Virus record (IMG/VR): IMGVR_UViG_3300009314_000008
Span: 1 to 64,000 of that record
DNA length: 64,000 nt
Source: a virus
Reading direction: 5' to 3' (one strand)
Of the stretch, positions 4,037-62,659 are shown in pieces (position 1 is the stretch's first letter; every line of letters starts with the position of its first letter). A program made the position numbers and the translations under genes. The notes below the pieces were generated by a model, which saw only the letters and a program-made list of their open reading frames with translations, was not told the DNA's origin and made no database searches.

Positions 4037-4798
4037 ATGGAATGTCCTTCGATCATTAAGGTCGCACTATCCAAAAGACTTAAAAAAGATTTAATTATTC
4101 CCAAGGGGACGATCTTTCGCGACATTAGACCAGGAACAACTGTCAAATACATTAGTCCCGGCCATTATGATTCAATTTTTGGACTAACAAAAGATACCTA
4201 CGGTTCTATAATGTATTCGTTTGATAACAATATTGACACAAAACAGAAACGTTTATTAAATGAATATTTCGAGAATATTAACAGTATGTCTAAAACAGCC
4301 AGACCAAGTAAAATAAAGGCACTATATAACATCATGAGAACCAGACAATATCTTCCATCTCTTGACAAAATAGATTTTGTTAAATTCCCAGACAAAAATA
4401 TTTTTGTCAGAGAAGATATTAAACCGATTACGCAGTTCCCCAAAAGAAATACTAAATCGAAATTGTTGGAGATGCTTGAAGGCTCTGCTCATGAGGGATT
4501 TCATCAATTAGGTGTTCATAAGGATGTTATCTCAATCAAAGAACTTCAAAGACTTGGGTTTAAGAGATCTATTGGACTTCCTGTCCCGGGCGAGTTCGTT
4601 TTATCTCCCTCATGGAGACTGGGTAAACTGCATGTTCGTAAATTAAATGACTTATTTCTTATCCATAAAGATAATATTGCCCCGCAAAACTTGATAGATA
4701 CTATAAAACATAATGCTATTGATGTTCCTGCTGGCATCTATGCTTATTGGCTGAAAGGGATAAAAGAAATAGCCACCAATAGTAAGGAGATCAAATGA
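4037..4798 (+). CDS. Tagged protein inserted between the two beta' segments, 253 aa
   Basis: It starts directly after the beta stop (TAA ATG) and overlaps the next ORF by ATGA, so it is translationally coupled inside the RNAP operon. The N-terminus MECPSIIKVA is the leader shared by many minus-strand virion-cluster proteins. The rest is basic and soluble, with no catalytic motif I recognise. It interrupts what is continuous beta' sequence in bacteria, exactly where the clamp region continues in the next ORF. It could be an RNAP accessory or assembly factor, or unrelated cargo inserted into an ancestral beta-beta' fusion. The tag suggests a virion link (inference). Function unknown. Confidence 0.8.
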   Translation: MECPSIIKVALSKRLKKDLIIPKGTIFRDIRPGTTVKYISPGHYDSIFGLTKDTYGSIMYSFDNNIDTKQKRLLNEYFENINSMSKTARPSKIKALYNIMRTRQYLPSLDKIDFVKFPDKNIFVREDIKPITQFPKRNTKSKLLEMLEGSAHEGFHQLGVHKDVISIKELQRLGFKRSIGLPVPGEFVLSPSWRLGKLHVRKLNDLFLIHKDNIAPQNLIDTIKHNAIDVPAGIYAYWLKGIKEIATNSKEIK

Positions 4799-5787
4799 GT
4801 GAAATACTCAACAGACTATCCGACATCGATATTGACGATAGGTTACCTCGCATTAAAAATAGAATAGAGCATGAGACTAGCCCCAGGATAATTGATAAGT
4901 TAGTTAAGGAGTTTAAGGTTTTAAATAATCTTAAGAAAGAGGGATTAACTCCATATGAGGCATTTACTAGAGAGATTGTGCCAGTTATCCCAGCTCAGTT
5001 CAGATCACCCATCGAACTTCCCAATGGCAACATTTTTAGCCCAGAGACTAATATACTGCTTCGAGATATTGCTCTCACAAATAATCTTGTTGATAAATCA
5101 AAAGAAATGGGGAAAGAACAGGAAGATAAAGCAACCAAAGAACTTTACAAAACCGTTGAGAAACTAATGGGATTCAAATCCCCCGAAGAGGGAAAGAATT
5201 TATTCGACACTATATCCGGTGGTAAGGCCCCCCCCAAGAGAGGATTCTTCCAAAGGCATATGGTTCGCAAACGTCAAAACATGTCAGGAGGGTCAGTGAT
5301 ATCCCCTGGTCCTCATTTAGATATTGATGAAGTCGAAATACCATATGATATTGGGCTAAATATTTTTGAACCATTTATTAAAAAAGAACTCACGGAACGT
5401 GGATATGCCAACGATGACATCGAAAAGGCAATATCAAAACGAACTTCATTAGCAAAAGACGCTCTTTTATCAGCCAGTAGGAACAGGCCTGTATTGATTA
5501 ACAGAGCCCCGTCTATTTGGCAAGGATCAGTAACTGCACATAAGCCAATATTTACAAATAAGAAGAACATTACTATCCCTAGCTTGCTTACGGCTTATCA
5601 GGGTGCGGATTTTGACGGTGATAGTTGCATATCTTTCATTCGTTTACGTTATAAGCAGAATGCTGATTTTTATATTGACATTAAGTCTGTTTTTAAATAC
5701 ATTGTCTCCATAATTAAAATATGGAGGAAGAAAATAAATGCGAATAGCAATAACAGACAACAGGCGAAACATAATAGTAAACGATGA
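4795..5787 (+). CDS. rpoC: RNA polymerase beta' middle segment with N-terminal half of a split intein
   Basis: Residues 1-276 are beta': LTPYEAFTREIVPVIPAQFR (bacterial VLPVLPPDLRP), KRGFFQRHMVRKRQNMSGGS (the LLGKRVDYSGRSV region), RPVLINRAPSIW (HPVLLNRAPT) and the catalytic loop ADFDGD at 271-276, which supplies the three Mg-binding aspartates. Directly after DFDGD the sequence leaves the family: residues 277-330 begin SCISFIRLRY, an intein N-terminal splice block with Ser277 or Cys278 as nucleophile. The ORF then stops after a Lys/Asn/Arg-rich tail. The continuation VSVHVPIS appears only in the ORF at 6811. Splicing of the two products would restore DFDGD-TVSVHVP. The N-terminal beta' part before this ORF is fused to beta. 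Confidence 0.92.
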   Translation: MSEILNRLSDIDIDDRLPRIKNRIEHETSPRIIDKLVKEFKVLNNLKKEGLTPYEAFTREIVPVIPAQFRSPIELPNGNIFSPETNILLRDIALTNNLVDKSKEMGKEQEDKATKELYKTVEKLMGFKSPEEGKNLFDTISGGKAPPKRGFFQRHMVRKRQNMSGGSVISPGPHLDIDEVEIPYDIGLNIFEPFIKKELTERGYANDDIEKAISKRTSLAKDALLSASRNRPVLINRAPSIWQGSVTAHKPIFTNKKNITIPSLLTAYQGADFDGDSCISFIRLRYKQNADFYIDIKSVFKYIVSIIKIWRKKINANSNNRQQAKHNSKR

Positions 5788-29562: not shown

Positions 29563-30204
29563 TTATTTCAATTTCCTCATTACTGTAATAATGTTATCTT
29601 TTTTCCGCCTTATTGTAGATTCTGACACCCCTACCCGTTGAGCAATCTGCTCATTAGTTGACAATCTTGGATATCCGTGTATCCCATAAGTTAGTGCCAA
29701 TATTTTCTTTTCGTCAGAATTCTCAAGTTTATTATAAACCATATCCAAGAAGTTTTTTTCATTGAATGTGGGATCAAAAGCCATTGTGATATTGTCTGCA
29801 AAAGAGATATCTGATGTTAATTTTCTGCCAGTTTCCTCTGATAATCTTTTTATGTCGCCAATACCCATCTTTAATCTGTCAGCCATTTCCTCGTAGGTTG
29901 GCTTTCGTCCGACCTTCTCCTCAAAGGTAGCCACCTCGGATGTGAATTTGCCAAATTTCTGCGATCTTTCTTCAGGAATATATATAGGACTCGCTTCATT
30001 CACAAACCTATTCATCGATTTCATATAATTGCTCACATGGTTAGCCAATGGACCTTTTTGGGGATCAAAAGTATTGAGAGCTTCTCCGACTAATATTTCC
30101 GCCTGCAATCTTAACAGGTTTTTAGGTATTGTGCTCCCAGAAAATCTATTGACAGTTGAATTAATTAAAGGTTGATATTTCTTTAGGACATCATTATATT
30201 CCAT
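29563..30204 (-). CDS. Sigma-70-family RNA polymerase sigma factor, 213 aa
   Basis: Start at ATG 30204 (MEYNDVLKKYQ) with AAGGAGAT upstream. The sigma architecture is intact. Region 2 is YQPLINSTVNRF, ILVGEALNTFDPQKG and LANHVSNYMKSMNRF. Region 3 has the typical SEVATFEEKVGRKPTYEEMA followed by DRLKMGIGDIKRLSEET. Region 4 is LALTYGIHGYPRLSTNEQIA followed by QRVGVSESTIRRKKDNII, a helix-turn-helix. Sigma factors direct RNAP to promoters. The gene is buried in the baseplate operon. With the phage's own beta and beta' it would give the enzyme promoter specificity, or redirect host RNAP to late genes. Confidence 0.88.
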   Translation of the reverse strand: MEYNDVLKKYQPLINSTVNRFSGSTIPKNLLRLQAEILVGEALNTFDPQKGPLANHVSNYMKSMNRFVNEASPIYIPEERSQKFGKFTSEVATFEEKVGRKPTYEEMADRLKMGIGDIKRLSEETGRKLTSDISFADNITMAFDPTFNEKNFLDMVYNKLENSDEKKILALTYGIHGYPRLSTNEQIAQRVGVSESTIRRKKDNIITVMRKLK

Positions 30205-30205
30205 A

Positions 30206-32146
30206 TTATCTCCTTGGCAATATATCGTCTCCATATTCTTCTAGTAATTCCAGGATTTTATCTCGCCTCTCCGTTATAAATACCGTCCCATCTGGCACGA
30301 CAGTTGTTCCATGCTCTTCTAACGTTTTCACTTGATCTGTAACTTCTGATGCCATATCGGGTATAATTTTCTTATATTTCAATTCATATATACTCTTAGG
30401 GGTATTATCTCGTGTTATCAGTCCTCTTGAATACAAATATTCTCCAAATGTAATGATTTCTCGTTTACAATACCCATCTTTTTTAAATAAATCTTGATGA
30501 TTTGTTTTTATAGCATTAACGCTGTTTACTACCTCGGAGCCAGTTCTTTTTTCGCGTTTTCTCCTTTTTAGTAGTTTTAGATCATTCGAATGTTCTGTTA
30601 TGGGAATATAACCTATCATTCCCAAAATACCGGGAGAATATTCGCTTTCAACTACTTTGGCTGCAACCCCTTTAGAACCAGTAAGAATAGGATTGTAGCA
30701 ATAATCGTATATCTTATTAATATTTGTAAATACTTCCCTCTCCAGAAATGGATTGATCAAACCGATATCTGTCAGACTGGTTATTTTTCTGACATTAGTC
30801 ATCTCAATTTGTGTCCCGGTTTTTCCCGCAGACTGATCTATCATTATATTTACGCTGGATAATATTCCATAATAAACAGCATCCTGTGGTACATCATAGA
30901 CAATGCTCGGAAATCCCACTACTCCATAGGGGTGTAATTCTGGAAATGAACATTGCAGGATGTTCTGTGAATATCGTTTTTTCATAAATTCATAATCACA
31001 GAGGTTTTGCCAAACAATATTGCTTTGTTGTTCAGCAATTTCTTCAGGTTTTAGAATGTCTTCTCCAATTATTCTATTAAACAGATAACTCTTTATCTCA
31101 ATTGCTCCCCGTATCCCAAATTCATATTCTTCATCTGTCAGATTATACTTATTTTCCTTTAAATCCCCGGGCGATTCTCGACTGAAAAGATTATTATCGA
31201 ATATTTTATAGACATGGCGTAGTCGCGTTATGGGGGTGCTCCGGATATTGTCATTTAACAATTCTACATCATCACCGGCAATAAAGACATTACATTTGGG
31301 AGGAGCGACATTTAATATATCGGGCAGCAATACATATTTAGCCATCGATTTATCATTTGTTTGGATTTTTAGCCCAGACAGTATTTTCTCCACTCCCTTA
31401 TCATTATAGGCGGGACAACCAATGTTGATATAGCGGTATCCCACATGCATTAGTTTTCTCAAAATACCATCCAATGGTGTTTCATTGTTCAATATGACAT
31501 CCATATTGGTAGATTCCAGAAAGTTGGTCAACCCCTCCGCCCTATAAAATTCTTTAAACAAATCTTCATCAACATAAACATGATCGCGACTAATTTTCAG
31601 TCTCTTGTTGATATTTTTATAATAATATTCCCACGAATCCTTTAATAGGGATAAAACTTTATCAAAATAATCAACAACATTAAGTTTAACAGGATCTCCG
31701 AGATTAAATATCTGAAAAGCATTTTTTATAGCGTTGTTTATCACGGTTGTCCCCATATTTGCATCATCCATACCATAAAATTCATATGAACCAACTAATT
31801 GAAAAAAATTCTCGAACTCAAGAGCGGATAAATATTGAGATGGCAGATCGTTCAGATATTTATTCTGTCCAACGGCTAATATAGATCTCGTCCTAAGGTC
31901 TCTTTGCCTATTATAGGTAACACCCGTGGTTACACCGTCAAATAATAATCGGTAGACCTCTGAATCACAATCGTAATAGAATACCGTTATGATTGTACCG
32001 TCCTTGATCTCCGACAGTTTCCCCACTTGGGGCAAGGTAATTGTGGCTACACACAGATTATTCTCATGCATGGATATACTTATTTTCATCATTGGGACCT
32101 TTATTCCCTCCAAGTAGCAAACGGTATTCAGATCAACACCTCTCAT
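30206..32146 (-). CDS. Baseplate hub-type protein, 646 aa
   Basis: Start overlaps the previous stop by one base (TAATG). The N-terminal part is beta (VPMMKISISMHENNLCVATI), matching hub proteins of the gpD/gp27 kind that lie next to the tail tube initiator. The middle has alpha-helices (WEYYYKNINKRLKISRDHVY) and the C-terminal part has coiled or basic stretches (LLKRRKREKRTGSE) and a terminal helix. It is flanked by another baseplate gene and the sigma-like gene. It would form the central hub at the tail tip. The family is inferred from place and fold, not from a sure motif. Confidence 0.55.
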   Translation of the reverse strand: MRGVDLNTVCYLEGIKVPMMKISISMHENNLCVATITLPQVGKLSEIKDGTIITVFYYDCDSEVYRLLFDGVTTGVTYNRQRDLRTRSILAVGQNKYLNDLPSQYLSALEFENFFQLVGSYEFYGMDDANMGTTVINNAIKNAFQIFNLGDPVKLNVVDYFDKVLSLLKDSWEYYYKNINKRLKISRDHVYVDEDLFKEFYRAEGLTNFLESTNMDVILNNETPLDGILRKLMHVGYRYINIGCPAYNDKGVEKILSGLKIQTNDKSMAKYVLLPDILNVAPPKCNVFIAGDDVELLNDNIRSTPITRLRHVYKIFDNNLFSRESPGDLKENKYNLTDEEYEFGIRGAIEIKSYLFNRIIGEDILKPEEIAEQQSNIVWQNLCDYEFMKKRYSQNILQCSFPELHPYGVVGFPSIVYDVPQDAVYYGILSSVNIMIDQSAGKTGTQIEMTNVRKITSLTDIGLINPFLEREVFTNINKIYDYCYNPILTGSKGVAAKVVESEYSPGILGMIGYIPITEHSNDLKLLKRRKREKRTGSEVVNSVNAIKTNHQDLFKKDGYCKREIITFGEYLYSRGLITRDNTPKSIYELKYKKIIPDMASEVTDQVKTLEEHGTTVVPDGTVFITERRDKILELLEEYGDDILPRR

Positions 32147-42157: not shown

Positions 42158-43165
42158 TTATTTAATTCGGATTCTCATCCTACAGATACCACGAGTGTCG
42201 CCAAATCCGTGACCGGTATATCTCCATGCACCCCAGATGAAATCATCCCATTCCCATTTGGAATCAGATTTATCGCTTCCAATTTTGATGTTTTTACCCA
42301 AATAAGATGGATCTACAAACAAATAGATATCTGTATAGAGCTCGCCGCTATCACCTTCTTTATCAAAATAGTAAATAGTTTCATCATCATTTTTAAGGTC
42401 TGCCTTTATGGTTGTAATGACAGGAATATCCAGCAGGACTTTCTGCGCTATACCGTTTTTAAAAGTCTCTCCAGCAAGATTACCAACTTCACCAGCATCA
42501 AATGCAAGCATATCATTCCATGCAGTCTGAGACATCAACCATTTAGCAGGCACAAGTCCTTGTCGTGTGATATAGGACATTAGGTTCGTAAGATCTTTTT
42601 TTCTACCACTATTTGTCCAATCGATAGTATCAGTATATACTGTGGTGTCTCCACCAACATGATTACCCGTAATTGTCAATATGGAAGCAACATTCTTGAT
42701 AAAGCCTAAATCTTGAGTTCGCCTTATTGCTTCGGCACCATTTTTCGTTACCATATCAACAAGATCGGAAGCAGAAGATGTTTCAAGTTCCAGCCATGGT
42801 TTTTTGTGCCGTTCTGTTTCAATTTTGCCGATCCATATCTTATATTTTTTTGTGTCTACGAAAATGGGTTGGGTATCACCTCTTATAGAGACCTCGGCAG
42901 CGGTTGCTCCGATTTCCTTCTTGTCAAGTACGTAAAATACATCAGCATCTTCGGTCTCTTGAATACCCGGATCCTTCGGTGACATGGTTTTATTGACCAA
43001 GAGTTTCTCAGAGAAAGCCTCTTCCCTTACATATCTCTTGACGTAATTTTCCAGAGAAGTTCCGAATTTCGTTATAAAATTATCTTTTGCCTCACGACCA
43101 TTCATCGCAAGGTCTTGCAGAATATCGTTCGCCTCTTTTATTAATTGTGTATTATCTATATTCAT
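42158..43165 (-). CDS. Major capsid protein (HK97 fold), 335 aa
   Basis: Length and order (after scaffold and protease genes, before neck genes) fit the HK97-type major capsid protein. Visible landmarks: an N-terminal helical arm, FVDTKKYKIWIGKIETERHK (E-loop-like), the spine helix SSASDLVDMVTKNGAEAIRR, the A-domain segment WLMSQTAWNDMLAFDAGEVG, a hinge VLLDIPVITTIKADLKNDDE and the P-domain strand YTDIYLFVDPSYLG. SD GGAGATGAG. It builds the icosahedral shell. Confidence 0.8.
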   Translation of the reverse strand: MNIDNTQLIKEANDILQDLAMNGREAKDNFITKFGTSLENYVKRYVREEAFSEKLLVNKTMSPKDPGIQETEDADVFYVLDKKEIGATAAEVSIRGDTQPIFVDTKKYKIWIGKIETERHKKPWLELETSSASDLVDMVTKNGAEAIRRTQDLGFIKNVASILTITGNHVGGDTTVYTDTIDWTNSGRKKDLTNLMSYITRQGLVPAKWLMSQTAWNDMLAFDAGEVGNLAGETFKNGIAQKVLLDIPVITTIKADLKNDDETIYYFDKEGDSGELYTDIYLFVDPSYLGKNIKIGSDKSDSKWEWDDFIWGAWRYTGHGFGDTRGICRMRIRIK

Positions 43166-45601: not shown

Positions 45602-47590
45602 TTATTTATCATATAGATTTTTCCACATCGATGCAATAATGCTATCTCTATCTTCTATAGGATATTGCGTTATATCCATCCCATTAAAATCCATTCCATT
45701 TTTTATTAACATATCAAGTTCGGCATGCTTCCCTACCACTCCCTTAAGTATTACTTTTATTGCTTTTCGAGTATGGGGATTAGCGGTAAGCCCAGCAGCA
45801 ATTCCAACCCCTCCAGGATTTTTGGCCACGAATTTTTCAACACCGCTGATATGTCTTCCCGATTTGGCTTTATTATAAACATGCCCAGCATATAAATAAG
45901 ATGCCACGGGCAGCCCAACCAAGGTAGCTATATTCGTATATTTAGCAGATGTCTTAACCATATTATTACCCATTTCTTCCCGCGAATAGTTAAATAAACG
46001 CGAAGCCACCTCGCTGCCGACAATGGCGGCTATCCAGAGTTTTGGGTTACCTTTTATATTTTTAACAAGCGGGACAAGGTGTTTTCCTGCTTTTGTTTTC
46101 GACAACATATAGGTAGCAGCGATGGTTCCTAATATTCCAGGTAAGGGCGATTTATGATTTTTGGGCGGATCTAAATATGCATTAATTTCATTTGCCCTCT
46201 TTACCATCACGATTCTCTTGATCATGCATGGTCTATAATATGACCTTTGCATTAAAAACGGTTTTATGATATCAAAAATATTGTTATTAATTTTATCTGG
46301 AGAGAAGGTTATTCCTGGTAAGCATTCCCCAGATGTTGGAATTCCCTCTATTGTATCCGGAATAACTATTTTCTGTCTATCATATTCATCTGCATCATCT
46401 TTTTTCCCCATTTGAATTAAGATAATCCTCTGAAATTCCCGTGGACGAGGGTATGCCCCCGCACTCAAGAATGTTGTCAGAATATCATCAATGGGATATT
46501 TTGCAATCTCACTTATTGTTCCCACCGGAAGATCCATTTCAGATGCTTTCAATTCCGGGACTATTTTTTCACCGATATAATTGTTAATCGCCATATGATC
46601 ATCACTTAATACTTGGCCTTCTACCTCTTTTTCAATATCTGCCTTCTTATCTTCTGCCCTCTTGTTCTCGGAGGCTTTTTCTATTTCAATTAATTCTTCT
46701 TCTGTTATTCTGCCAGAGTCATCTTTGCTAGCAACCTTCTGCAGGACATAACTGGATTTTTCAGCATTCGTTCCCACCTTACTTATATCGAAAAACTTAG
46801 GTCTCATATTGACCACAGAGACAACTATACCGGTTGAGGGCACCATTCTACCCCTCATGTACTTCATATGGTCGCAATATTTGTTCAATGTTGAGTGAAT
46901 CCCAACAGGACCTCTTCCGAGACTCTTCTTTTGTCCATCATCAGTTTCCTTGAATTCTTCGTCATTCAATTCAGTAATATATGACAAATCAACGCCATAC
47001 TTTTTGCCAATCGCCTTTATCTCATCAATATCGCCGGAAATAGATATTTTGATCATTTCATTTTCCGGAATCTTGTAGAATTCTTTCCATTTAGGATGGC
47101 ATACCCGACAAACATCATAAGGAACCCTCATGCCCATCGATGTCGGAATATGCTGGTGACTATCCAGCATCTGCTTCGTGTCCAAATCCTTCAGGGTATC
47201 CACCTCTGCAACTACCAGCACTCTGCCCATCATCTCATCCCATGTGGAGAAAATCACTCTACCGAACCCTTTGGCTGGGTCTTTATTCTCATGGCGATGA
47301 AAATAATGTGCCTTAAGGTAAGTTTTATACCCCCAATCATCCGTAGGATTACTTAGACTCATAGTTGGGAAGAAATCTGAATTACTATTTGCTCCCCAAC
47401 ACTCATCGGCAACCGCACTGATCAGCAAGAAGACCCTATTTTTTACCGGCGTTATGTTCGCCACAAACTCCTGAGCATCTTTGGGCATGTAATTGTAATT
47501 AGCCACTTTCTCCATGCCATAAAAATTAATCGGCTGGACAGTGGGGTTCCCATTCTTATCGTAAGATGGGAGGTCAATATATTTGATCAT
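45602..47590 (-). CDS. Prohead protease/scaffold fusion protein, 662 aa
   Basis: The N-terminal part matches phage prohead (capsid maturation) proteases: KAHYFHRHENKDPAKGFGRV (His near 95-100), then SMGMRVPYDVCRVC (Ser151, Cys161/164), a later KYCDHMKYMRG and the stretch VVNMRPKFFDISKVG. The middle is a helical scaffold-like region. The C-terminal 180 residues have hydrophobic helices (GILGTIAATYMLSKTKAG, ATLVGLPVASYLYAG). The usual protease is about 200-250 aa, so this is a large multidomain form, perhaps protease plus scaffold core. It would cut internal head proteins before DNA packaging. Confidence 0.75.
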   Translation of the reverse strand: MIKYIDLPSYDKNGNPTVQPINFYGMEKVANYNYMPKDAQEFVANITPVKNRVFLLISAVADECWGANSNSDFFPTMSLSNPTDDWGYKTYLKAHYFHRHENKDPAKGFGRVIFSTWDEMMGRVLVVAEVDTLKDLDTKQMLDSHQHIPTSMGMRVPYDVCRVCHPKWKEFYKIPENEMIKISISGDIDEIKAIGKKYGVDLSYITELNDEEFKETDDGQKKSLGRGPVGIHSTLNKYCDHMKYMRGRMVPSTGIVVSVVNMRPKFFDISKVGTNAEKSSYVLQKVASKDDSGRITEEELIEIEKASENKRAEDKKADIEKEVEGQVLSDDHMAINNYIGEKIVPELKASEMDLPVGTISEIAKYPIDDILTTFLSAGAYPRPREFQRIILIQMGKKDDADEYDRQKIVIPDTIEGIPTSGECLPGITFSPDKINNNIFDIIKPFLMQRSYYRPCMIKRIVMVKRANEINAYLDPPKNHKSPLPGILGTIAATYMLSKTKAGKHLVPLVKNIKGNPKLWIAAIVGSEVASRLFNYSREEMGNNMVKTSAKYTNIATLVGLPVASYLYAGHVYNKAKSGRHISGVEKFVAKNPGGVGIAAGLTANPHTRKAIKVILKGVVGKHAELDMLIKNGMDFNGMDITQYPIEDRDSIIASMWKNLYDK

Positions 47591-47602: not shown

Positions 47603-47983
47603 TTATATTCGGGGCGCCCTATAATATTTTATTAATGAATTAACATACTTTTCAGCATCTCTCTGTAATACACTGGGGAATGCTTTTGCTTTTAAATCAT
47701 CAATTTCAGATAAAACTTTTGCTGCCCCCCCAGATAGTCCTCCTGCACCTACATGACGCATAGTCTTCATTAAAGATTTTGGTCCTATCAGCGAAGATAG
47801 TGCCCCTATCCCAGCCCCTAATAGAACAGCAGGCAATCGTCCCTGCTCAATATTATCAAAAGCATGAGTCTTGTAGTCTTTTATTGCCTGACTTTTGGTA
47901 TATTGTGGATTAGTTGATATTTCGTCTTCGATGTCTGCAATATCTTTGACTATTGCTTCTTTAATTATTAATGGACGTTTCAT
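47603..47983 (-). CDS. Tagged glycine-rich membrane-type protein, 126 aa
   Basis: Start at ATG 47983 (MKRPLIIKEAIVKD) with AAAGGAGAAA. The upstream reading from 48031 has no SD. The N-terminus is a variant of the shared leader (Cys replaced by Arg). Residues about 50-90 hold two short glycine-rich hydrophobic stretches (VLLGAGIGALSSLIG, GAGGLSGGAAKVL). First of a run of small tagged genes. Confidence 0.65.
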   Translation of the reverse strand: MKRPLIIKEAIVKDIADIEDEISTNPQYTKSQAIKDYKTHAFDNIEQGRLPAVLLGAGIGALSSLIGPKSLMKTMRHVGAGGLSGGAAKVLSEIDDLKAKAFPSVLQRDAEKYVNSLIKYYRAPRI

Positions 47984-48027: not shown

Positions 48028-48123
48028 TCAATGATATCTTTCTTCTCTTTTGATCTTTGCAACAAATAGAGGTTGTAATATAGTGCTGATCACCGCCTCT
48101 TTAACTACAATGGGACATCTCAC
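48028..48123 (-). CDS. Tagged micro-protein, 31 aa
   Basis: The GTG start is preceded by AGGAAATAGAA. The product is V/MRCPIVVKEAVISTILQPLF then VAKIKREERYH. The first ten residues are the shared leader and little else follows. It may be a real leader-only peptide or the stump of a lost cargo gene. The gene overlaps upstream sequence of the 126-aa gene only by a few bases. Confidence 0.45.
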   Translation of the reverse strand: MRCPIVVKEAVISTILQPLFVAKIKREERYH

Positions 48124-48135
48124 TATTTCTATTTC

Positions 48136-48615
48136 CTATGTATCTCTCATATAGTATTTATAGTTTTTAGGATTTTTCTTTATCCCCGGTCTTTGATAAT
48201 GTCTCCTGAAATTTTCTATATCAGTTTTTTTATCAGCATATGCTCGCATTCTCTCCATTCTCCTTTTATTTGGAGTAAATGCTGCACCTAATCCTATTCC
48301 ACTTAATAGCGACGATCCCAATATAATAGGTAATTTGTATTTTCCTTTTATTTTTGACCCGGACATAAGACTACTAGATATTGTGCCACCCAGTCCTCCT
48401 CCTAATATCCCTCCAGCGACCTGCCTATTTTTTTTGTATACTTTAGGCAGATTCCTATATCTATTTATCCTTTTGTTCCTCAATTCATCAGATAATTCCA
48501 GATATTTATCGCTTGTTATTTCTTTTGCTTTTGTTGGGGTATACCCTCTATACTCACCTTTGTTGGATACTCTCATCAATGTAATGGCTTCTTTTACTAT
48601 TCTTGGACATTTCAT
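48136..48615 (-). CDS. Tagged glycine-zipper protein, 159 aa
   Basis: MKCPRIVKEA leader, SD AAAGGAGAAT. Two glycine-rich hydrophobic segments (VAGGILGGGLGGTISSSLM at about 67-85, and IILGSSLLSGIGLGAAFTP at about 96-114) separated by a basic loop suggest a hairpin membrane insertion. The C-terminus is basic. A 15-codon ORF with GGAGAAT SD (48635-48682) lies just upstream. I do not call it as a gene. The glycine-zipper hairpin and leader recur in the protein at 58059. Confidence 0.7.
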   Translation of the reverse strand: MKCPRIVKEAITLMRVSNKGEYRGYTPTKAKEITSDKYLELSDELRNKRINRYRNLPKVYKKNRQVAGGILGGGLGGTISSSLMSGSKIKGKYKLPIILGSSLLSGIGLGAAFTPNKRRMERMRAYADKKTDIENFRRHYQRPGIKKNPKNYKYYMRDT

Positions 48616-48869: not shown

Positions 48870-49139
48870 TTAACTAGATTTATCTTTTTTTAATGTTTGT
48901 GCTCGTCTCCAACCTGACATATATCCAAGATGATAACCTATTGAACCAGGTATCGTTAGTAGCCCAGCGTAATTTTTAAATTTCAGTCGTTCCGGATTTT
49001 CTTTTCTGCTGATAGCTCCTTCCCTAAATCCCTTTTTCTTACCTTCTCCATGACCTATCAAAGAAGGTGTTCCAAATAACGACAGATCGATGGCAGGACC
49101 TACGAGAACGGCCATTTTAACTATTTGTGGACATTTCAT
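48870..49139 (-). CDS. Tagged protein, 89 aa
   Basis: MKCPQIVKMA leader with SD AAAGGAGAAATAAG. The body has Gly-rich and hydrophobic segments (VGPAIDLSLFGTPSLIG and LLTIPGSIGYHLGYMSG) and a basic C-terminus. In the run of tagged genes. Function unknown. Confidence 0.65.
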   Translation of the reverse strand: MKCPQIVKMAVLVGPAIDLSLFGTPSLIGHGEGKKKGFREGAISRKENPERLKFKNYAGLLTIPGSIGYHLGYMSGWRRAQTLKKDKSS

Positions 49140-49153
49140 CTTATTTCTCCTTT

Positions 49154-49645
49154 CTAAACTCCAGACACAACGTAGGGCTTACCAACTAAGGGTTGTTTAC
49201 CTAACACTATGTGTGCAGGATATTTTTTATTCTTAATTATATTATGTTTTATCTTTATACCTTTTGGTTTTATTGCTTTTAACTTCTTGTAGCCAAACCT
49301 TCCTCCAACTCCGATTGCAGCACCACCTATAGTTCCTTTGACAACATTTCCACCGCTTATGCCCGATGATATTCCACCGACAGATCCACCAACAATACCT
49401 GCTTTTGTATATGGATTTTTCCATATATGTTTAGCGATGGGTTTAAATGCTTTTAATGCGGCAACTATTCCCGCTTCCTTCAGTACTATTGGGCATGCCA
49501 ACTTAATCCCATTATCGGTTTTTCTCTTAGTTATTGCTGGTGCATATCTTGCCCGGGAATTAGTTATTGTTGGCGTTTTCATCACAACAGATTGTCCGGC
49601 CTTTAATGCTTTACTATACAATAGACCCTTATCATAATTTATCAT
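49154..49645 (-). CDS. Protein with internal tag and glycine-zipper segment, about 163 aa
   Basis: The leader-like sequence IKLACPIVLKEAG is internal, at about residues 47-59, after a 45-residue basic region. It is followed by a large Gly/Ser/Val hydrophobic stretch (AGIVGGSVGGISSGISGGN and IGGAAIGVGG) and a basic tail. Two close ATGs exist (49654 and 49645). I prefer 49645 for its better spacing from AGGATGG. The internal tag shows that the motif can mark a junction as well as a start. Confidence 0.6.
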   Translation of the reverse strand: MINYDKGLLYSKALKAGQSVVMKTPTITNSRARYAPAITKRKTDNGIKLACPIVLKEAGIVAALKAFKPIAKHIWKNPYTKAGIVGGSVGGISSGISGGNVVKGTIGGAAIGVGGRFGYKKLKAIKPKGIKIKHNIIKNKKYPAHIVLGKQPLVGKPYVVSGV

Positions 49646-50393: not shown

Positions 50394-50421
50394 ATTATAG
50401 CGCCTTGTCTTTGGTGGTCAA
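50394..50421 (-). promoter_or_regulatory. Sigma-70-type promoter
   Basis: TTGACC (50416-50421) and TATAAT (50394-50399) on the minus strand with 16 bases between. It overlaps the stop codon of the J-domain gene and would drive the 232-aa gene and the tagged genes beyond it. It is one of the few good host-type promoters in the window. Confidence 0.55.
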
Positions 50422-51299
50422 GTAGGTCCACCAAAGTTTGCTCCAGAACACACACCTTCCGTACCTCGACTTTTAATGGATTTATTTGCTGATTGTATCC
50501 ACCTTTTGGTTGCTTCCTTTAATACCCATGGACATAAAGCCTTCTTTTCTATAAGTAAATGCATAGATTTGCCCCGCGCCATCTTCAATATATTGGGATA
50601 CGCTAATTTCTTAAACCAATCCGTTTTTGACACATCATCAAATGCTCTATTGATTGTTTTAGCAATTTCCTCATTGCCTCCTTTGTCGGGATGCACTTTC
50701 CTCATCGTTGCCCAATAAGCTTGTTTTACCTGACTTTTTGAGTTAACTCCTTTCATCTTTAATCCGAAAGTACTTAAATTCTTTTTTATGGTAGCCTTTG
50801 GAATGTTCGGCGACCCTGAGTATTGTTGATATGCACGCCTGAAACCATCATATGATGCGCCCCGCAATTTTGCGTGATTGTACGGGATAAAAGATCCTGC
50901 CAACATCCCTAATCGTATACCCACACCCACAGATTTTTTCAGTTCATTTTTATTTCGTCGTGTTCTATTAGAATAAAATTGTTTAAATGTCGCTGATGGA
51001 TTCTTTTTTTTATACCTTCCCCATTGGTTTTTAAGAGTACCAGCATATGATAGCCCACCCCCTACTGCGCTACCTCCTCCTATTCTAATGGCCATTTGCC
51101 TCATAACCTCACTTTGTAGTGAAGCCTTTTTTGGAAGCCCCTTTCTCTTAGTTTTAGCAAATTCCCTGATTTTTTCTTTGGGCATTTTCTCGTATATCTG
51201 CCTAGCCGGACCATGTAATGCAGAGACTGGTATTTCGCCCTTTTTGGCTGCATAGACAAGTCCCATTAATTTTTGTTGGTTCTGACTGACACTGGGCAC
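50418..51299 (-). CDS. J-domain protein with two C-terminal tags, about 293 aa
   Basis: The GTG at 51299 with AGGAGAATAAC is preferred. The upstream ATG at 51314 is also in frame. Near residues 190-225 is a J-domain: KSQVKQAYWATMRKVHPDKG (HPD motif, Gly) followed by KTINRAFDDVSKTDWFKKLA. Directly after it come two leader-like blocks: YPNILKMA and CPWVLKEA. A glycine-rich helical region lies near residues 75-90 (GGGSAVGGGLSYAG). J-domains stimulate Hsp70/DnaK. A phage virion-cluster protein with one is unusual. A similar J-domain gene lies at 60457. Confidence 0.75.
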   Translation of the reverse strand: MPSVSQNQQKLMGLVYAAKKGEIPVSALHGPARQIYEKMPKEKIREFAKTKRKGLPKKASLQSEVMRQMAIRIGGGSAVGGGLSYAGTLKNQWGRYKKKNPSATFKQFYSNRTRRNKNELKKSVGVGIRLGMLAGSFIPYNHAKLRGASYDGFRRAYQQYSGSPNIPKATIKKNLSTFGLKMKGVNSKSQVKQAYWATMRKVHPDKGGNEEIAKTINRAFDDVSKTDWFKKLAYPNILKMARGKSMHLLIEKKALCPWVLKEATKRWIQSANKSIKSRGTEGVCSGANFGGPT

Positions 51300-51300
51300 G

Positions 51301-52017
51301 TTATTCTCCTGCATAGAATAATGGATTTATTCCAGCTTCAACTAATACTGTTATTTTACCCGGATTAGACGCACCGCTGACTACTTGTATTTCAATGTCT
51401 GATTTACTCTCAACTATTATTGGTTCTTCTAAATCTATTTCTGCCACTCCATTCAGGAGGGACACAGATAATTCCCGTTTAAATACTTTCCCAAAAGGTC
51501 TTACATTCAAAGACATAAGCGAACTCCCATCATCTGCACCCGCTTCTGACAGAATAATCTTTTTAATGAAGATCCTTTTCTTATTGGGCACTGTATAGAG
51601 AGCCATCTCACTCTTATTTTTTCCGGTTTCTATCATACCTCTAATGTTGTTATCATTAGGTATTCCGCCTGTCGGAGCAGATTCGGTACCGATATATATG
51701 TCGCCAGCATTATTGGTGTCTCCTATATTCTCTATACTAAACACCCTTCTCCAAGAATTATCTTCTCCAATTTTTACCCCGGTTTGCCCCGAAGATGTAA
51801 CCTCTACCTCTTGATAAACATAATTAGCATCTACCCCTGTCACTTTATAATCCTGATCATCTCCGTTATCAGAGCTGGACAAATATAATGTTTCTGATAC
51901 AGAACCATAAATATATTCCATATTATGTGGCCAAACAAGTTGATTTACATCTGTTGTCAGATTCCCAGCATATCCTTTTATTTTTATAGGTTTCATACCC
52001 GCGAATACTTTGCTCAT
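51301..52017 (-). CDS. Virion structural protein, 238 aa
   Basis: It lies directly after the portal gene. Beta-rich with segments common in phage virion proteins: SWRRVFSIENIGDTNNAGDI, YIGTESAPTGGIPNDNNIRG, NKSEMALYTVPNKKRIFIKK and LMSLNVRPFGKVFKRELSVS. I have seen this pattern in head or surface proteins but cannot name the family with certainty. Likely decorates the virion. Confidence 0.55.
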   Translation of the reverse strand: MSKVFAGMKPIKIKGYAGNLTTDVNQLVWPHNMEYIYGSVSETLYLSSSDNGDDQDYKVTGVDANYVYQEVEVTSSGQTGVKIGEDNSWRRVFSIENIGDTNNAGDIYIGTESAPTGGIPNDNNIRGMIETGKNKSEMALYTVPNKKRIFIKKIILSEAGADDGSSLMSLNVRPFGKVFKRELSVSLLNGVAEIDLEEPIIVESKSDIEIQVVSGASNPGKITVLVEAGINPLFYAGE

Positions 52018-58058: not shown

Positions 58059-58310
58059 TTACGGTTGTTTAATCCATTTCCCCATTCTCTTATAATCTGC
58101 ATAACCGCCAGCTCCTGCACCTAACAAACTTCCTCCCATAAATGCACCTATTGTAGACAAAGGATTGTATTTTTTTTGTTTACCTTTTTTAATCCTTTTA
58201 TTTTGGGATGAGCTATTTAGCATAGATGCTCCTATACCACCACCCAACATACCAATACCCGTCCTTAATCCCGGTACATAGGCTTCCTTAATTATCTCTG
58301 GACATTTCAT
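58059..58310 (-). CDS. Tagged glycine-zipper membrane protein, 83 aa
   Basis: MKCPEIIKEA leader, which also fits the I-x-E cut site. Two Gly-rich hydrophobic helices (LRTGIGMLGGGIGASMLN and LSTIGAFMGGSLLGAGAGGY) flank a basic loop (KRIKKGKQKKY), matching the hairpin of the 159-aa gene at 48136. Starts in ATGA overlap with the next gene upstream. Confidence 0.7.
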   Translation of the reverse strand: MKCPEIIKEAYVPGLRTGIGMLGGGIGASMLNSSSQNKRIKKGKQKKYNPLSTIGAFMGGSLLGAGAGGYADYKRMGKWIKQP

Positions 58311-58600
58311 TTCATTCTCCTCTTTATTATAGATATCAAATCGCTTGCATCTCTTTTTAATTTCTTAACCATCTTTATCTGCCTAGCCTTTTCAAATTTC
58401 TTTGCCTGTCTCATGTAGTTAACCTGATAAGGGATTGCCTTGACTTGTAGTTTTATTGATCTGACAGGGTAGTATCTTCTATATTTAGAAAGGTCGTTAA
58501 TAAAATTATGAGAGAATATTGCTTTAGTCATTGCTTTGGTAGACGCTCTCCCTAACAATGTTGAAGTTAAGGCTTCTTTAATTATCCCTGGACATCTCAC
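58307..58600 (-). CDS. Tagged basic protein, 97 aa
   Basis: MRCPGIIKEA leader. It is followed by a very basic helical body (KKFEKARQIKMVKKLKRDAS) with no hydrophobic segment. It could bind nucleic acid or act as a charged packaged protein. It overlaps the kinase-like gene start and the next gene by ATGA. Confidence 0.65.
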   Translation of the reverse strand: MRCPGIIKEALTSTLLGRASTKAMTKAIFSHNFINDLSKYRRYYPVRSIKLQVKAIPYQVNYMRQAKKFEKARQIKMVKKLKRDASDLISIIKRRMK

Positions 58601-60444
58601 AACAAATCCTCCCCATAAATTTTTAACTTTTTATATAGTATTTTCTTTATCTTTGGCATATTTAATGGAATCTTATCTTTCATTTTATTTAATGTCTTCA
58701 ATCCAAAAGCACTTGCTTCCGCTTCTGATAAATACTCGTTCATAGCAGTAGGCTTCTTCCAATATTTCTGGTTATATGTTTGTTTCTTAAGAATATCCAA
58801 TAATCCTTTTTTGCTCTTCACAGCATGCCCCAGTTCGTGAGACAACACTGCTGCCGGCTCATTTTTTCTTGGAAGCATAGAGACGATCTTCCTGACAGCA
58901 ACATTTTTCACTTTAGGAATAGATATAGATAAATCATTTCCTCTACCTTTGAGAAATTGCCCGCCACGCAGCAATCTAATATAATCTCTTACCCCAATAT
59001 CTGAGTTGACTCCCCCATATTCTATATTGAGCATTCTCTTAAGAGTGGGATTGATCTTTTTAAGTGGGATGAAATGCCTCTCTATAGGAATCTTGTGCGC
59101 CTTTATTTCTCGAAGTAAAGGTCTTAATTTAAGTATAGACCTTAGGGAAGACTTTTTTTGTAAAATGCTGGGGCAATTCATTGTTTTTCCCACTTTAAAA
59201 AGTTTTTGTTTATTTAGAGGACTTCCGGTTCTACCCTTCATAGTCCATTCCTTGAATTGCTCTACGGTCATCGCCGTGATCGGTCCACATTTCCATCCCT
59301 TCTCATAATTAGCGAGATATGTTTTTCTAGCCTCATCTTCAGTGAGTGCCCCGAGGATACACTTGTGTTCATCGAATTTACCGTTCTTGTCTACTTGATC
59401 AATTACATACACTATCTGACTTTCTGGATGACTTCCTATGAACACATCAATTTTGTCCCCATCTTTCCCATCCTGTGCATTAGAGATGTATCCATAATCA
59501 TATTTCATCTTTATTGACCACGATTTACCATCTGGGTCAGTTCCGGATCTCGTTGATCCCTTTGGGTTCTCCAATTTAATAGTCAGTCCATTCCACTTGA
59601 ATGACCCTTTTTTGTAGTTCTCGGCTTTTATTTGGGCATCTGATGGGTTAATGTTGGTATCTTTTCGAGCCCTATTTATATCTCCGGTCATTGTTGCTAT
59701 TTTAATATTATTGGGCATTCTGTCATTTAACGCCTCCCTCATTGCTCTGTATGAATCTTTTTTAATGTTACGTTTCATGTCCAAGTTTGTAGGGAATGCC
59801 TTATAGTTAGTAATATCAAAGTCTATTAAAGTGTTTCCTATTGTGTTTTGAGCGGTAGTATCTCTAAGATGAGGAAACCTTTTTTTAATATTCTTATAGT
59901 CCGACTTGTTTATTATATTTGCATTAATTATTTTATGAACTTTTTCTCTTGCCTTGTTTATAGAAATTATTCTTTTTTGCCATCTAATTTTTTCTGCTAC
60001 TGTCCCCTCTCTTGGATACTCATTAGGGACCATATTTTTTTTTATTATTGCCGCTTTATCAGAAATTTTTCTCCCCTTAATGTATTCATAATATCCAATC
60101 CCTTTATTTCTCTTTACCATTTTCGCTACAGGAATACCCTTTTTGTGCATTAACTTCCTCGCTTTATTCCATACCTTATGCTCCATTGCCTGAGCTTTAT
60201 ATATTCCTATAATATCGCTTGCAGATTTTCTGTCTATTAAAGGTATTTTTCTAACAGCTTTTCCAATACCTTCTGTGAATACGAGGTCGGCGATCCTGAA
60301 AGCTCCTCTACCTAATGGCTTTATCGTCCTGTCTTTATACCCAGCTTCCGCCAGTCTTTTAAGCGACTCTCTTCCTAATTTCCCAGACCTCACCATCTTA
60401 ACCCATCTTGGAGAAGCTCTCTTCAGTATTACAGGACAATTCAT
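58597..60444 (-). CDS. Multidomain tagged protein: kinase-like, pyrophosphatase-like and zinc metallopeptidase, 615 aa
   Basis: Leader MNCPVILKRA, then a protein-kinase-like fold (about 36-250): glycine-rich loop LGRGAFRIADLVF, GKAVRKIP (Lys), EHKVWNKA (alphaC Glu), hinge YYEYIKGR and NTLIDFDI (DFD in place of DFG). I see no HRD-type catalytic loop. Next, residues about 258-410 match the phage inorganic pyrophosphatase-like domain: NINPSDAQIKAENYKKG, LENPKGSTRSGTD, GYISNAQDGKDGDKIDVFIG, DEHKCILGALTEDEA. A second tag MNCPSILQKK (422-431) begins a third module with HELGH (536-540) and a downstream YLSEAEASAFG Glu, a zinc metallopeptidase. The internal tag marks the junction of cargo modules. 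Confidence 0.75.
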   Translation of the reverse strand: MNCPVILKRASPRWVKMVRSGKLGRESLKRLAEAGYKDRTIKPLGRGAFRIADLVFTEGIGKAVRKIPLIDRKSASDIIGIYKAQAMEHKVWNKARKLMHKKGIPVAKMVKRNKGIGYYEYIKGRKISDKAAIIKKNMVPNEYPREGTVAEKIRWQKRIISINKAREKVHKIINANIINKSDYKNIKKRFPHLRDTTAQNTIGNTLIDFDITNYKAFPTNLDMKRNIKKDSYRAMREALNDRMPNNIKIATMTGDINRARKDTNINPSDAQIKAENYKKGSFKWNGLTIKLENPKGSTRSGTDPDGKSWSIKMKYDYGYISNAQDGKDGDKIDVFIGSHPESQIVYVIDQVDKNGKFDEHKCILGALTEDEARKTYLANYEKGWKCGPITAMTVEQFKEWTMKGRTGSPLNKQKLFKVGKTMNCPSILQKKSSLRSILKLRPLLREIKAHKIPIERHFIPLKKINPTLKRMLNIEYGGVNSDIGVRDYIRLLRGGQFLKGRGNDLSISIPKVKNVAVRKIVSMLPRKNEPAAVLSHELGHAVKSKKGLLDILKKQTYNQKYWKKPTAMNEYLSEAEASAFGLKTLNKMKDKIPLNMPKIKKILYKKLKIYGEDLL

Positions 60445-60456
60445 TTAATACCTCTT

Positions 60457-61341
60457 TTAGTGGCGTTTTTTAAAATATTCAGATGCTTCGGGGTTACTTT
60501 TATAGAGTTGGAACCTGTATTTCCTTCTTAGGTATTTCATACGTAACTCATCTAATTTTCTTGGAGACTTAAATACATACTTCCTTGTCTTCGGGCTCCT
60601 CATCATGCGAAATCTTCTCGTGAGCGGACCCCTAATAAGTGCATTAAATGCTTTTCCTGAAACATCCGCCGCATTCGTGACGAGTCGTCCCGACACCGCT
60701 GTTTTCGGTATATAAGGTGCTCTCTCATATGCAAGTTTACTGAACCACCCTGAGTTTTTAATGGATGTCCATGCTCCCACCACTTCTTTCATAATATCCT
60801 CCGAACCACCTTTATCAGGGTGGCTTTTCATTGCTGCTGCTCTAAAAATCTTTTTTACCTGAGCCTTAGTCTTTACTGACGATTTATTAATGTTTAGCGT
60901 TTTAATTGCTTTATCTAAATTTCCGCTCTTTACCGCGAACCCACCTAAGTTTTTAAAGTATTCATAATATTTTTTATTTAAATCTTCCCACATTGCCCGG
61001 TTCATCCTTCCTCTTATGTTTTCTGCTGCTCCATTAAGCCCTCTTCTTATGTTTTCTGCTGCTTCATTAAGCCCTCTCATTCTTCTTTTATGCCGATACA
61101 CCGATGGTCCTATTGCCATCCCCACAAGAGCTCCCCCAATAGCTGTCCCTATTGCGGCATCTTTAAGATCCTTACCGGATTTCGTCTTTATGTATTGCCC
61201 AAAAGATAATCTGTTTTTTCTCCCACCCCGCACATACTTATTGTAGTTTCGGTGTCCTTGCCATAAACTTGCCCCACCGAGCATTCCACCCAATGTGCCG
61301 CAGGTGGCAGTAGTTCCAGCTATTGTCTTAAATGCTCCCAT
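60457..61341 (-). CDS. J-domain protein with glycine-rich membrane segment, 294 aa
   Basis: The N-terminal 85 residues hold two Gly/Ala-rich hydrophobic stretches (TCGTLGGMLGGASLW and AAIGTAIGGALVGMAIGPS). A J-domain covers about 150-205: INKSSVKTKAQVKKIFRAAA, MKSHPDKGG (HPD 174-176), then EVVGAWTSIKNSGWFSKLA. The same end WF(S/K)KLA follows the J-domain in the protein at 50418. A tandem 11-residue repeat (RGLNEAAENIR) lies at about 89-110. The leader tag is absent. SD AAAGGAGAAA. Confidence 0.75.
   Translation of the reverse strand: MGAFKTIAGTTATCGTLGGMLGGASLWQGHRNYNKYVRGGRKNRLSFGQYIKTKSGKDLKDAAIGTAIGGALVGMAIGPSVYRHKRRMRGLNEAAENIRRGLNGAAENIRGRMNRAMWEDLNKKYYEYFKNLGGFAVKSGNLDKAIKTLNINKSSVKTKAQVKKIFRAAAMKSHPDKGGSEDIMKEVVGAWTSIKNSGWFSKLAYERAPYIPKTAVSGRLVTNAADVSGKAFNALIRGPLTRRFRMMRSPKTRKYVFKSPRKLDELRMKYLRRKYRFQLYKSNPEASEYFKKRH
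61013..61078. repeat. 33-bp tandem repeat, two copies
   Basis: Two adjacent 33-bp copies differ at one or two positions. They encode the repeated peptide RGLNxAAENIR in the J-domain gene. Confidence 0.8.
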
Positions 61342-61429: not shown

Positions 61430-61552
61430 CTATTTAACAAACACCCATTCGATTACAACAGTGCCTGAACAGTTTAGATCACCATCTGGATGCCAATGCC
61501 ATAACCCTCTATCTTCAACATCGGCAATTTTCAATATTTTAGGACATTTCAT
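61430..61552 (-). CDS. Tagged micro-gene/remnant in frame with the gene upstream, 40 aa
   Basis: MKCPKILKIA leader, then DVEDRGLWHWHPDGDLNCSG and TVVIEWVFVK. The last block resembles the C-terminus (TVVIEWVLLKE) of the protein at 62915. The frame is open back to the stop of the gene at 61592: CAT ATT AAT GAA CAA AAA..., reading INEQKLFKVGEQ before the Met. The same segment LNKQKLFKVGKT precedes the internal tag of the 615-aa protein. It is therefore the leftover of a deleted fusion, possibly still translated (a weak GGCG SD). Confidence 0.55.
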   Translation of the reverse strand: MKCPKILKIADVEDRGLWHWHPDGDLNCSGTVVIEWVFVK

Positions 61553-61591
61553 TTGTTCGCCTACTTTAAATAATTTTTGTTCATTAATATG

Positions 61592-62659
61592 TTATCTTAT
61601 CTTCCTGATAATTCCTGAAATAAATTTTCTCGCCTTTATGGGCACTTTTTTATAGTTTTCTGCCTTAATCTGTGCTTCTGACGGATTAGCATTAGTTGCT
61701 TTGCGAGCACTGGCAATATCTGATAACATCCCGGAGAATTTTATCATAGCATTTTTTTTGATTTGATTCACTCCATTTTTATCTTTATTTTTTGCTTCTC
61801 TAATTCCAGCGGCAACCAAAGCCCCTCCTAATATAACGGAGGGTATTATTTTATTTTTGTTTCTGCTGAAATATCCAGGAAACGTTTTCTTATAGTTTTC
61901 AGTCGTACGCATTCCATTAGCAAACGCTTTATAAGTATCACGATAATGCTTGGATGGTCCTCTATCCATTGTATAAGTTTGGGGTCCTAGAATATCAAAG
62001 TCTACTAGCGTTCTATCAACAAGATTTCTATTCGTCATATCATATATTCTCGGATATTTTCTTTTTATTTTTCGCATGGTTTTAGCATCTATAGGTGATT
62101 TATTAAGAATCCTTAACATCCTTAATTTAGCATTCTTTACCCGAATTCTCCTAACTCTATCACCCTGCTTTCCATATTCGTCTAGTTTATTAAATAATTT
62201 TTTTGCTTTATTAGCAACGCTCCTACCTTTAACATGCTCATAATATCCTATTGGGCCATCTTGTTTTATCAATCGAGGAACCTTTATCTTCTTTTTTGAC
62301 AAATATTTTTGCACTTTATTCCATACAAAATGTTCCTTTGCTTGGCTATTATATGGCTCATGAATATAATATTTCGACACCCCCTCTATATTAGGTATTT
62401 TTCTAACAGCTTTACCCACCCTACTAGTAAATACCAAGTCAGAGACTCTTGTTCCTCCCACTCCAAGATGTTTTATTGTCCTATCTTTATATCCAGCATT
62501 TGCAAGAATTTTTAATGCCTTCTCACTTAATTTGCCTGACCTTATCATCTTGATCCATTTGGGAGACGAATACTTCTCTATTGCAGATATCTTAATTATT
62601 GTTGGAAGCATACTTATTCTCCTAATTCCCGATGTTTTTATGATACAAGGGCATTTCAT
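61592..62659 (-). CDS. Tagged kinase-like protein with truncated pyrophosphatase-like domain, 355 aa
   Basis: Two leader-like starts: MKCPCIIKTS (62659, SD GGGGGATC) and MLPTIIKISA (62611, with a better SD, TTAGGAGAATAAGT). The body matches the kinase-like half of the 615-aa protein: HLGVGGTRVSDLVFTSRVGK, RKIPNIEG, KEHFVWNKVQK, GYYEHVKGRS, NLVDRTLVDFDI. After residue 309 only ARKATNANPSEAQIKAENYKK remains of the pyrophosphatase-like domain. A glycine-rich helix sits near 275-290 (IPSVILGGALVAAGIRE). The stop is directly followed by in-frame coding of the tagged micro-gene. Confidence 0.75.
   Translation of the reverse strand: MKCPCIIKTSGIRRISMLPTIIKISAIEKYSSPKWIKMIRSGKLSEKALKILANAGYKDRTIKHLGVGGTRVSDLVFTSRVGKAVRKIPNIEGVSKYYIHEPYNSQAKEHFVWNKVQKYLSKKKIKVPRLIKQDGPIGYYEHVKGRSVANKAKKLFNKLDEYGKQGDRVRRIRVKNAKLRMLRILNKSPIDAKTMRKIKRKYPRIYDMTNRNLVDRTLVDFDILGPQTYTMDRGPSKHYRDTYKAFANGMRTTENYKKTFPGYFSRNKNKIIPSVILGGALVAAGIREAKNKDKNGVNQIKKNAMIKFSGMLSDIASARKATNANPSEAQIKAENYKKVPIKARKFISGIIRKIR

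What the first reader, a model, noticed from the sequence alone, without database searches (positions are those of the whole stretch)
58597..60444. Kinase-like, pyrophosphatase-like and metallopeptidase modules in one tagged polypeptide
The 615-aa protein joins three enzyme-like modules, with the second leader copy (residues 422-431) exactly between the second and third. The kinase-like part has DFD and lacks a clear HRD loop, so it may be a pseudokinase. The last module has HELGH and a distal Glu. The peptidase may cut the polyprotein or host proteins after delivery.
Basis: partly seen in the sequence, partly recalled or inferred. Interest (0 to 1): 0.7.

Follow-up and report, generated by a model that had tools for sequence, protein, structure and literature searches.

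The report
Leader-tagged multi-enzyme phage protein
A bacterial virus encodes one protein that strings together several enzyme-like parts, and a short address-label peptide at its front, repeated in its middle, recurs on many of the virus's other proteins and probably marks them for loading into the virus head.

Summary
The 615-aa ORF is real, but on the minus strand (58597-60444). It is a phage polyvalent-type protein: leader, kinase-like module, inorganic-pyrophosphatase domain (Pfam InPase, E=1e-50), second leader at residues 422-431, HELGH metallopeptidase-like module (M91-like, at or below cut-off). The kinase call rests on motifs only; no kinase family matches. D195/N200/DFD are conserved in a paralogue, so "lacks the HRD loop, pseudokinase" is weak. 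AlphaFold models were useless.

The more interesting part is the leader, M-x-[CT]-P-x-I-I-K-E-A. I count 14 copies in this 78-kb record and 18 in two related contigs, against about one expected by chance. Its end, h-x-K-E-A, is also concentrated in scaffold and capsid genes of distant relatives (11 in 3,181 residues against 6 in 50,717), as expected for a head-protease cut site. It resembles the T4 IPII/IPIII capsid-targeting leader. Modules are exchanged at leader copies.

Best reading: a virion-packaged, injected effector with a T4-like head-targeting leader; the mid-protein copy is a fusion scar from joining two tagged genes. Both copies here lack the E, so cleavage at Met422 is not predicted. 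All function is inferred. Class known; leader system apparently undescribed.

The parts
58597..60444 (-). 615-aa polyvalent-type protein: leader, kinase-like, InPase, leader, HELGH peptidase-like
60415..60444 (-). N-terminal leader copy MNCPVILKRA (residues 1-10)
   Evidence: Shine-Dalgarno-like duplex -7.1 kcal/mol upstream
59725..60411 (-). kinase-like module (residues 12-240): G-loop-like GRGAF 45, K62, E88, D195..N200, DFD 208-210
   Evidence: motifs and conservation in the paralogue; no family hit
59242..59640 (-). InPase domain PF18823 (residues 269-401), DGDKID at 328-333
   Evidence: E=1e-50; PDB 9b41 portal C-terminus E=6.7e-26
59152..59181 (-). internal leader copy MNCPSILQKK (residues 422-431), Met422
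   Evidence: weak Shine-Dalgarno-like site -4.7 kcal/mol
58690..58941 (-). metallopeptidase-like module (residues 502-585), HELGH 536-540, NEYLSEAEA 569-577
   Evidence: Peptidase_M91 E=2.8e-5, 25.0 bits against cut-off 25; 23.3 bits for the whole protein
61592..62659 (-). 355-aa paralogue: leader, second leader-like peptide, kinase-like module, truncated InPase start
61433..61591 (-). remnant downstream of the paralogue: InPase end (QKLFKVG), leader MKCPKILKIA, then an unrelated stub
4037..4066 (+). leader MECPSIIKVA on a 253-aa HEGFH protein (4037-4798)
47954..47983 (-). leader MKRPLIIKEA
48094..48123 (-). leader VRCPIVVKEA (GTG start)
48586..48615 (-). leader MKCPRIVKEA
49110..49139 (-). 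leader MKCPQIVKMA
49472..49501 (-). internal leader copy LACPIVLKEA (codon TTG)
50511..50540 (-). internal leader copy ALCPWVLKEA, no start codon, in the DUF3008/DnaJ-like 298-aa protein
58281..58310 (-). leader MKCPEIIKEA
58571..58600 (-). leader VRCPGIIKEA (GTG start)
62630..62659 (-). leader MKCPCIIKTS of the paralogue
45602..47590 (-). probable head-maturation protease (662 aa)
   Evidence: homologous to Arash gp222 and a D69 protein; 2 of 3 alignment members hit phrog_18299 head maturation protease, best E=6.6e-7; the window's own protein has no hit
42158..43165 (-). major capsid protein with LIKEA at residues 8-12
   Evidence: homologous to Arash gp226 (E=1.2e-12); motif

Best explanation
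The ORF is a virion-carried polyvalent effector of a tailed phage. Its N-terminal leader works like the T4 capsid-targeting sequence: it brings the protein into the prohead core, so that it is packaged and injected with the DNA. After entry the InPase removes pyrophosphate (or a nucleotide signal), the kinase-like module phosphorylates a host target, and the zincin cuts a host protein or separates the modules. The leader at 422-431 is the start of a formerly separate tagged peptidase gene, fused to the kinase-InPase gene at a leader copy. Shown here: gene, domains, leader family, module exchange at leaders, enrichment of the KEA motif in head genes of relatives. Inferred: packaging, injection, cleavage on other tagged proteins, all enzyme activities.
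For: InPase E=1e-50; InPase polyvalent proteins are mainly phage proteins predicted to be packaged, some fused to portals (PMC5512222, passages); solved portal 9b41 carries this domain. Leader: 14, 8 and 10 accepted copies in the record and its two kin contigs against shuffle means of 0.6, 0.5 and 0.2 (logo); the strict DNA pattern clusters in kin (5 matches in one locus) while the genome collection gives 22 singletons. T4 IPII/IPIII start MKTYQEFIAEA, and that ~10-aa leader targets foreign proteins to the T4 core (PMC9958956 section 9). [ILVM]xKEA: 11 in 3,181 residues of the Arash/D69 head block against 6 in 50,717 elsewhere, p=2.6e-10, including both capsid-protein N-termini and repeats in the scaffold-position gene. 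Arash virions contain its RNA polymerase and other enzymes (PMC10585845, passages). Module exchange: the downstream module of the G001 DUF3008 fusion is a standalone tagged gene in G002 (45 of 57 identical), and the paralogue keeps InPase end plus leader with a different module after it.
Against: Both leader copies of this protein lack the E of KE|A, as do 4 of 4 at its two loci against 4 of 28 elsewhere, so a head protease should not cut it, and the leader may be decaying. No proteomics was found for this phage. The two kin contigs lack the 615-aa protein (both may be fragments). Kinase and peptidase modules have no relatives in the phage collection, and structure prediction failed (pLDDT 39 and 36). 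The head-block borders were set, and the looser [ILVM]xE[AS] motif is not enriched (p=0.19). In G000 itself the strict motif is not enriched in the head block (p=0.30) and the looser KEA motif only weakly (p=0.02).
Confidence: 0.5

Rival explanations
1. Met422 is a live internal start: the gene makes both the 615-aa fusion and a separate 194-aa tagged peptidase, as an overlapping in-frame gene.
For: Internal copies often keep ATG (6 of the 12 copies I class as internal), some with strong Shine-Dalgarno-like sites (-7.9, -7.4, -8.7 kcal/mol) against a background mean of -1.8 for 725 internal ATGs. The paralogue region has the same InPase end followed by ATG and leader.
Against: The site at Met422 is weak (-4.7; 12-16% of background internal ATGs do as well). 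Four internal copies have no start codon at all.
Confidence: 0.25
2. The zincin module cleaves the polypeptide near the second leader, freeing the modules.
For: Zincins are the commonest polyvalent domain and were proposed to process such proteins (PMC5512222). The leader sits at the module boundary.
Against: The same leader occurs internally in proteins with no recognised peptidase (for example the 298-aa DUF3008/DnaJ-like protein and G002_5007_6347), so it is not tied to this peptidase.
Confidence: 0.12
3. The leader is not a packaging signal but something else, for example a translation-start cassette, a membrane or host-factor docking helix, or a DNA repeat that spreads by recombination.
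For: N-terminal copies mostly carry strong Shine-Dalgarno-like sites; modules are exchanged at leaders; several tagged proteins are Gly-rich and membrane-like by eye; no virion data.
Against: Internal copies without a start codon keep the peptide; KEA is enriched in capsid and scaffold genes of relatives.
Confidence: 0.3
4. The kinase-InPase locus is decaying: both leaders have degenerated and the duplicate next door is broken, so the protein may have little function.
For: The paralogue lacks most of InPase and is followed by a stub; the E is missing in 4 of 4 leaders there.
Against: The 615-aa frame is open over its whole length, with InPase DGDxxD, HELGH and the D..N/DFD motifs intact.
Confidence: 0.15

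Closest known systems
Phage polyvalent proteins with InPase (Iyer et al. 2017, PMC5512222)
   Same: Several unrelated enzyme-like domains in one polypeptide; same InPase family PF18823; phage structural context
   Different: Kinase-PolyVal and MPTase-PolyVal models do not match; a shared leader at front and middle is not mentioned in the passages read
T4 internal proteins IPII/IPIII capsid-targeting sequence
   Same: About 10-aa N-terminal leader shared by different proteins, similar sequence ending I-x-E-A; T4 gp21 removes small N-terminal peptides from these proteins
   Different: Here Cys-Pro or Thr-Pro after M-K; more copies; used inside proteins at module junctions; targeting and cleavage untested
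Salmonella phage Arash / Vibrio phage D69 group
   Same: Homologous terminase (Arash), portal, capsid protein, protease and RNA polymerase; enzymes found in Arash virions; KEA motifs in head genes
   Different: Genomes of about 180 kb; no leader-like N-terminus showed in the stretches examined (L005-L007)
gp19 portal, PDB 9b41
   Same: InPase domain in a virion protein
   Different: Fused to a portal, not to kinase-like and peptidase-like modules

Membership tests
InPase (PF18823) | Profile match above the gathering score | tested here: met
   171.5 bits against cut-off 26.8, residues 269-401
Phage polyvalent protein | Two or more disparate domains in one polypeptide | tested here: met
   InPase plus an M91-like zincin at threshold; kinase-like by motif only
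Phage polyvalent protein | Packaged and injected | not testable with these tools
   Needs virion proteomics
Kinase-PolyVal (PF18762) | Profile match | tested here: not met
   No match at E<=10 in the record; profile-profile score 12.4 lies within 20 shuffled controls
MPTase-PolyVal (PF18818) | Profile match | tested here: not met
   No match at E<=10
Protein kinase / APH fold | Profile match to PF00069 or PF01636 | tested here: not met
   No match at E<=10
Protein kinase / APH fold | Ordered catalytic motifs (G-loop, K, E, D..N, DFx) | tested here: inconclusive
   Present in order and kept in the paralogue; Asn to DFx spacing of 8 is shorter than usual (recalled); no usable model
Peptidase M91 | Profile match above the gathering score | tested here: inconclusive
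   25.0 bits (module) and 23.3 bits (whole protein) against cut-off 25
T4-type capsid-targeting leader | About 10-aa N-terminal peptide shared by several unrelated proteins | tested here: met
   32 accepted copies in three records, 20 of which I class as N-terminal
T4-type capsid-targeting leader | Ends in a prohead-protease site | tested here: inconclusive
   KEA enriched in head genes of relatives; 24 of 32 leaders have E, but neither of the two in this protein
T4-type capsid-targeting leader | Directs proteins into the prohead | not testable with these tools
   Needs a reporter assay

The most novel reading that the evidence does not exclude
This phage lineage uses one 30-base leader as a plug-in cassette: it gives any captured domain a head-import signal and a head-protease site, and, being repeated, acts as the joint at which modules recombine, fuse and separate. 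Enzymes such as this kinase-InPase-peptidase are loaded into the virion by acquiring the leader, and copies that lose the E stay uncut.
Probability: 0.3. Interest if true: 0.75.

Novelty: new variant of a known kind. Interest (0 to 1): 0.5.

Why it matters
How tailed phages choose which enzymes go into the head is poorly known; the T4 review read here calls the localisation mechanism mysterious (PMC9958956). A recurring, recognisable leader with an apparent cut site would let packaged effectors be listed from sequence, and would show how polyvalent proteins are built by joining tagged genes.

Tried and rejected
Looking for relatives of the 615-aa protein, the paralogue, the kinase pair and the peptidase module in viral contigs found none; the terminase alone also found none. 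The kinase-like and peptidase-like modules had no tblastn match in the phage collection; plasmids gave only a chance-level match (E=0.1) for the kinase-like part. NCBIfam gave nothing. The uridylate-kinase PDB hit (E=0.3-0.44) was rejected as chance. Kinase-PolyVal members were drawn from 296 genomes (9 with a match); 4 sequences were aligned and compared with the module: no similarity beyond 20 shuffled controls. Both AlphaFold jobs gave pLDDT below 40, so I ran no fold search. The first protease alignment (A3) used the wrong Arash and D69 genes and was discarded for A4. PDB search with A4 gave only chance hits. Rfam and tRNA scans were empty. Literature: the leader strings gave 0 papers. Portal plus pyrophosphatase gave 0.

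Rows dropped before counting leaders: 23829 (G000) and 5310 (G002), judged chance; 59175 was added from the looser search. Matches in L008 and L013 were not leaders in the frames examined.

Full report
Observation. The 615-aa frame exists at the given coordinates but on the minus strand. It lies in a 78,445-base virus record that runs beyond the window, among terminase, portal, capsid and tail genes.

Domains. The middle domain is a phage InPase (PF18823, E=1e-50), with 457 of 50,697 phage records matching the protein at E<=0.01, over this domain in the rows I read (30 of 457). The closest solved chain is the C-terminus of a portal protein (9b41). The last module matches Peptidase_M91 at the cut-off (25.0 against 25 bits). 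The first module has no convincing family match. Its kinase-like motifs occur in order and are kept in a 355-aa paralogue next door, including D195, N200 and D208-F209-D210, so I keep 'kinase-like' as plausible and drop 'pseudokinase' as unsupported.

The leader. A scan of all frames of at least 25 codons found 14 matches of [CTRS]Px[IVLM][ILVM][KQ]x[AS] in the record, 8 in G001 and 11 in G002, against shuffle means of 0.6, 0.5 and 0.2 over 20 shuffles each. I dropped one chance match each from G000 and G002 and added the internal copy of the finding, giving 32. In these P is 32 of 32, K 31 of 32, A 29 of 32, E 24 of 32. G001 and G002 are IMG/VR contigs found by scanning for the leader itself, so their copy counts are not independent of that search; their terminase is about 50% identical to the window's. 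The same strict DNA pattern in 257 billion bases of genomes gave 22 stretches with one match each, while one kin locus alone gave 5.

Leader and head assembly. T4 IPII and IPIII begin MKTYQEFIAEA; [quoted passage not shown] In the distant relatives Arash and D69, [ILVM]xKEA occurs 11 times in 3,181 residues between protease and capsid genes and 6 times in 50,717 residues of other ORFs of at least 100 aa in the stretches held (p=2.6e-10); three swapped-letter controls and a reversed one show 0 or 1 hits in the block. The hits include both capsid-protein N-termini and repeats in the scaffold-position gene; the window's capsid protein has LIKEA at residues 8-12. Against this: the block was chosen, the looser [ILVM]xE[AS] is not enriched (p=0.19), and in G000 the strict form is not enriched in the head block (p=0.30). 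The window's 662-aa protein is homologous to Arash gp222, and 2 of 3 alignment members match a head-maturation-protease family; the window's own does not. Arash virions contain its RNA polymerase and other enzymes (PMC10585845, passages).

The internal copy. Of the 32 leaders I class 12 as internal: 6 with ATG, 2 with TTG and 4 without a start codon. Some internal ATGs have strong ribosome-site-like sequences; Met422 has a weak one (-4.7 kcal/mol). Modules change partners at leaders: a G001 fusion has a standalone tagged equivalent in G002 (45 of 57 identical), a G002 double-leader protein keeps only the end of the DUF3008 module (12 of 16 identical), and the paralogue of this finding keeps the end of InPase and the leader but then carries a different stub. 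G002_5007_6347 is a parallel case: leader, GNAT-like domain (E=0.0018, below cut-off), leader, Gly-rich module. So the copy at 422-431 is best read as the junction where a tagged peptidase gene joined a tagged kinase-InPase gene. The E needed for KE|A is missing in all four leaders of these two loci, against 4 of 28 elsewhere (p=0.002, chosen after the fact; 0.056 if only the two of this protein are counted), so cutting at Met422 by a head protease is not predicted.

Mechanism. Most likely the protein is carried in the head and injected; InPase would clear pyrophosphate or a nucleotide signal, as proposed for the class (PMC5512222, passages). None of this is shown for this phage.

Comparison. 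It belongs with phage polyvalent proteins by its InPase and multi-domain make-up, but not with the Kinase-PolyVal or MPTase-PolyVal families as modelled in Pfam. It works like a T4 capsid-targeting leader system by inference; membership is not claimed, since targeting and cleavage were not tested. No paper in the library holds the leader strings searched, and the passages I read of the polyvalent paper do not mention such a leader; I did not read that paper in full.

Noticed in passing
window 4795-9162 (+): The RNA polymerase beta' gene is broken at its DFDGD motif into three overlapping frames (4795-5787, 5738-6814, 6811-9162), the middle one endonuclease-like by eye: looks like a split intein with its own homing endonuclease. 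Motif reading; not tested with a family search.
   Followed up: no
window 4037-4798 (+): A leader-tagged 253-aa protein with HEGFH sits between the RNA polymerase beta and beta' genes; no Pfam match.
   Followed up: partly
window 50418-51314 and 60457-61341 (-): Two DnaJ-like proteins related over about 100 residues (33% identity), one carrying an internal leader without a start codon.
   Followed up: partly
L020:5007-6347 (G002): A kin protein with leader, GNAT-like domain, leader and Gly-rich module, parallel to the finding.
   Followed up: yes
L004, record positions 71862-72164 and 74508-74813: Two paralogous ~100-aa proteins, 61% identical.
   Followed up: no
window 29563-30234 (-): Sigma-factor-like protein homologous to the Arash RpoS-like gene product gp10, which was found in Arash virions; it lies among tail genes.
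   Followed up: no
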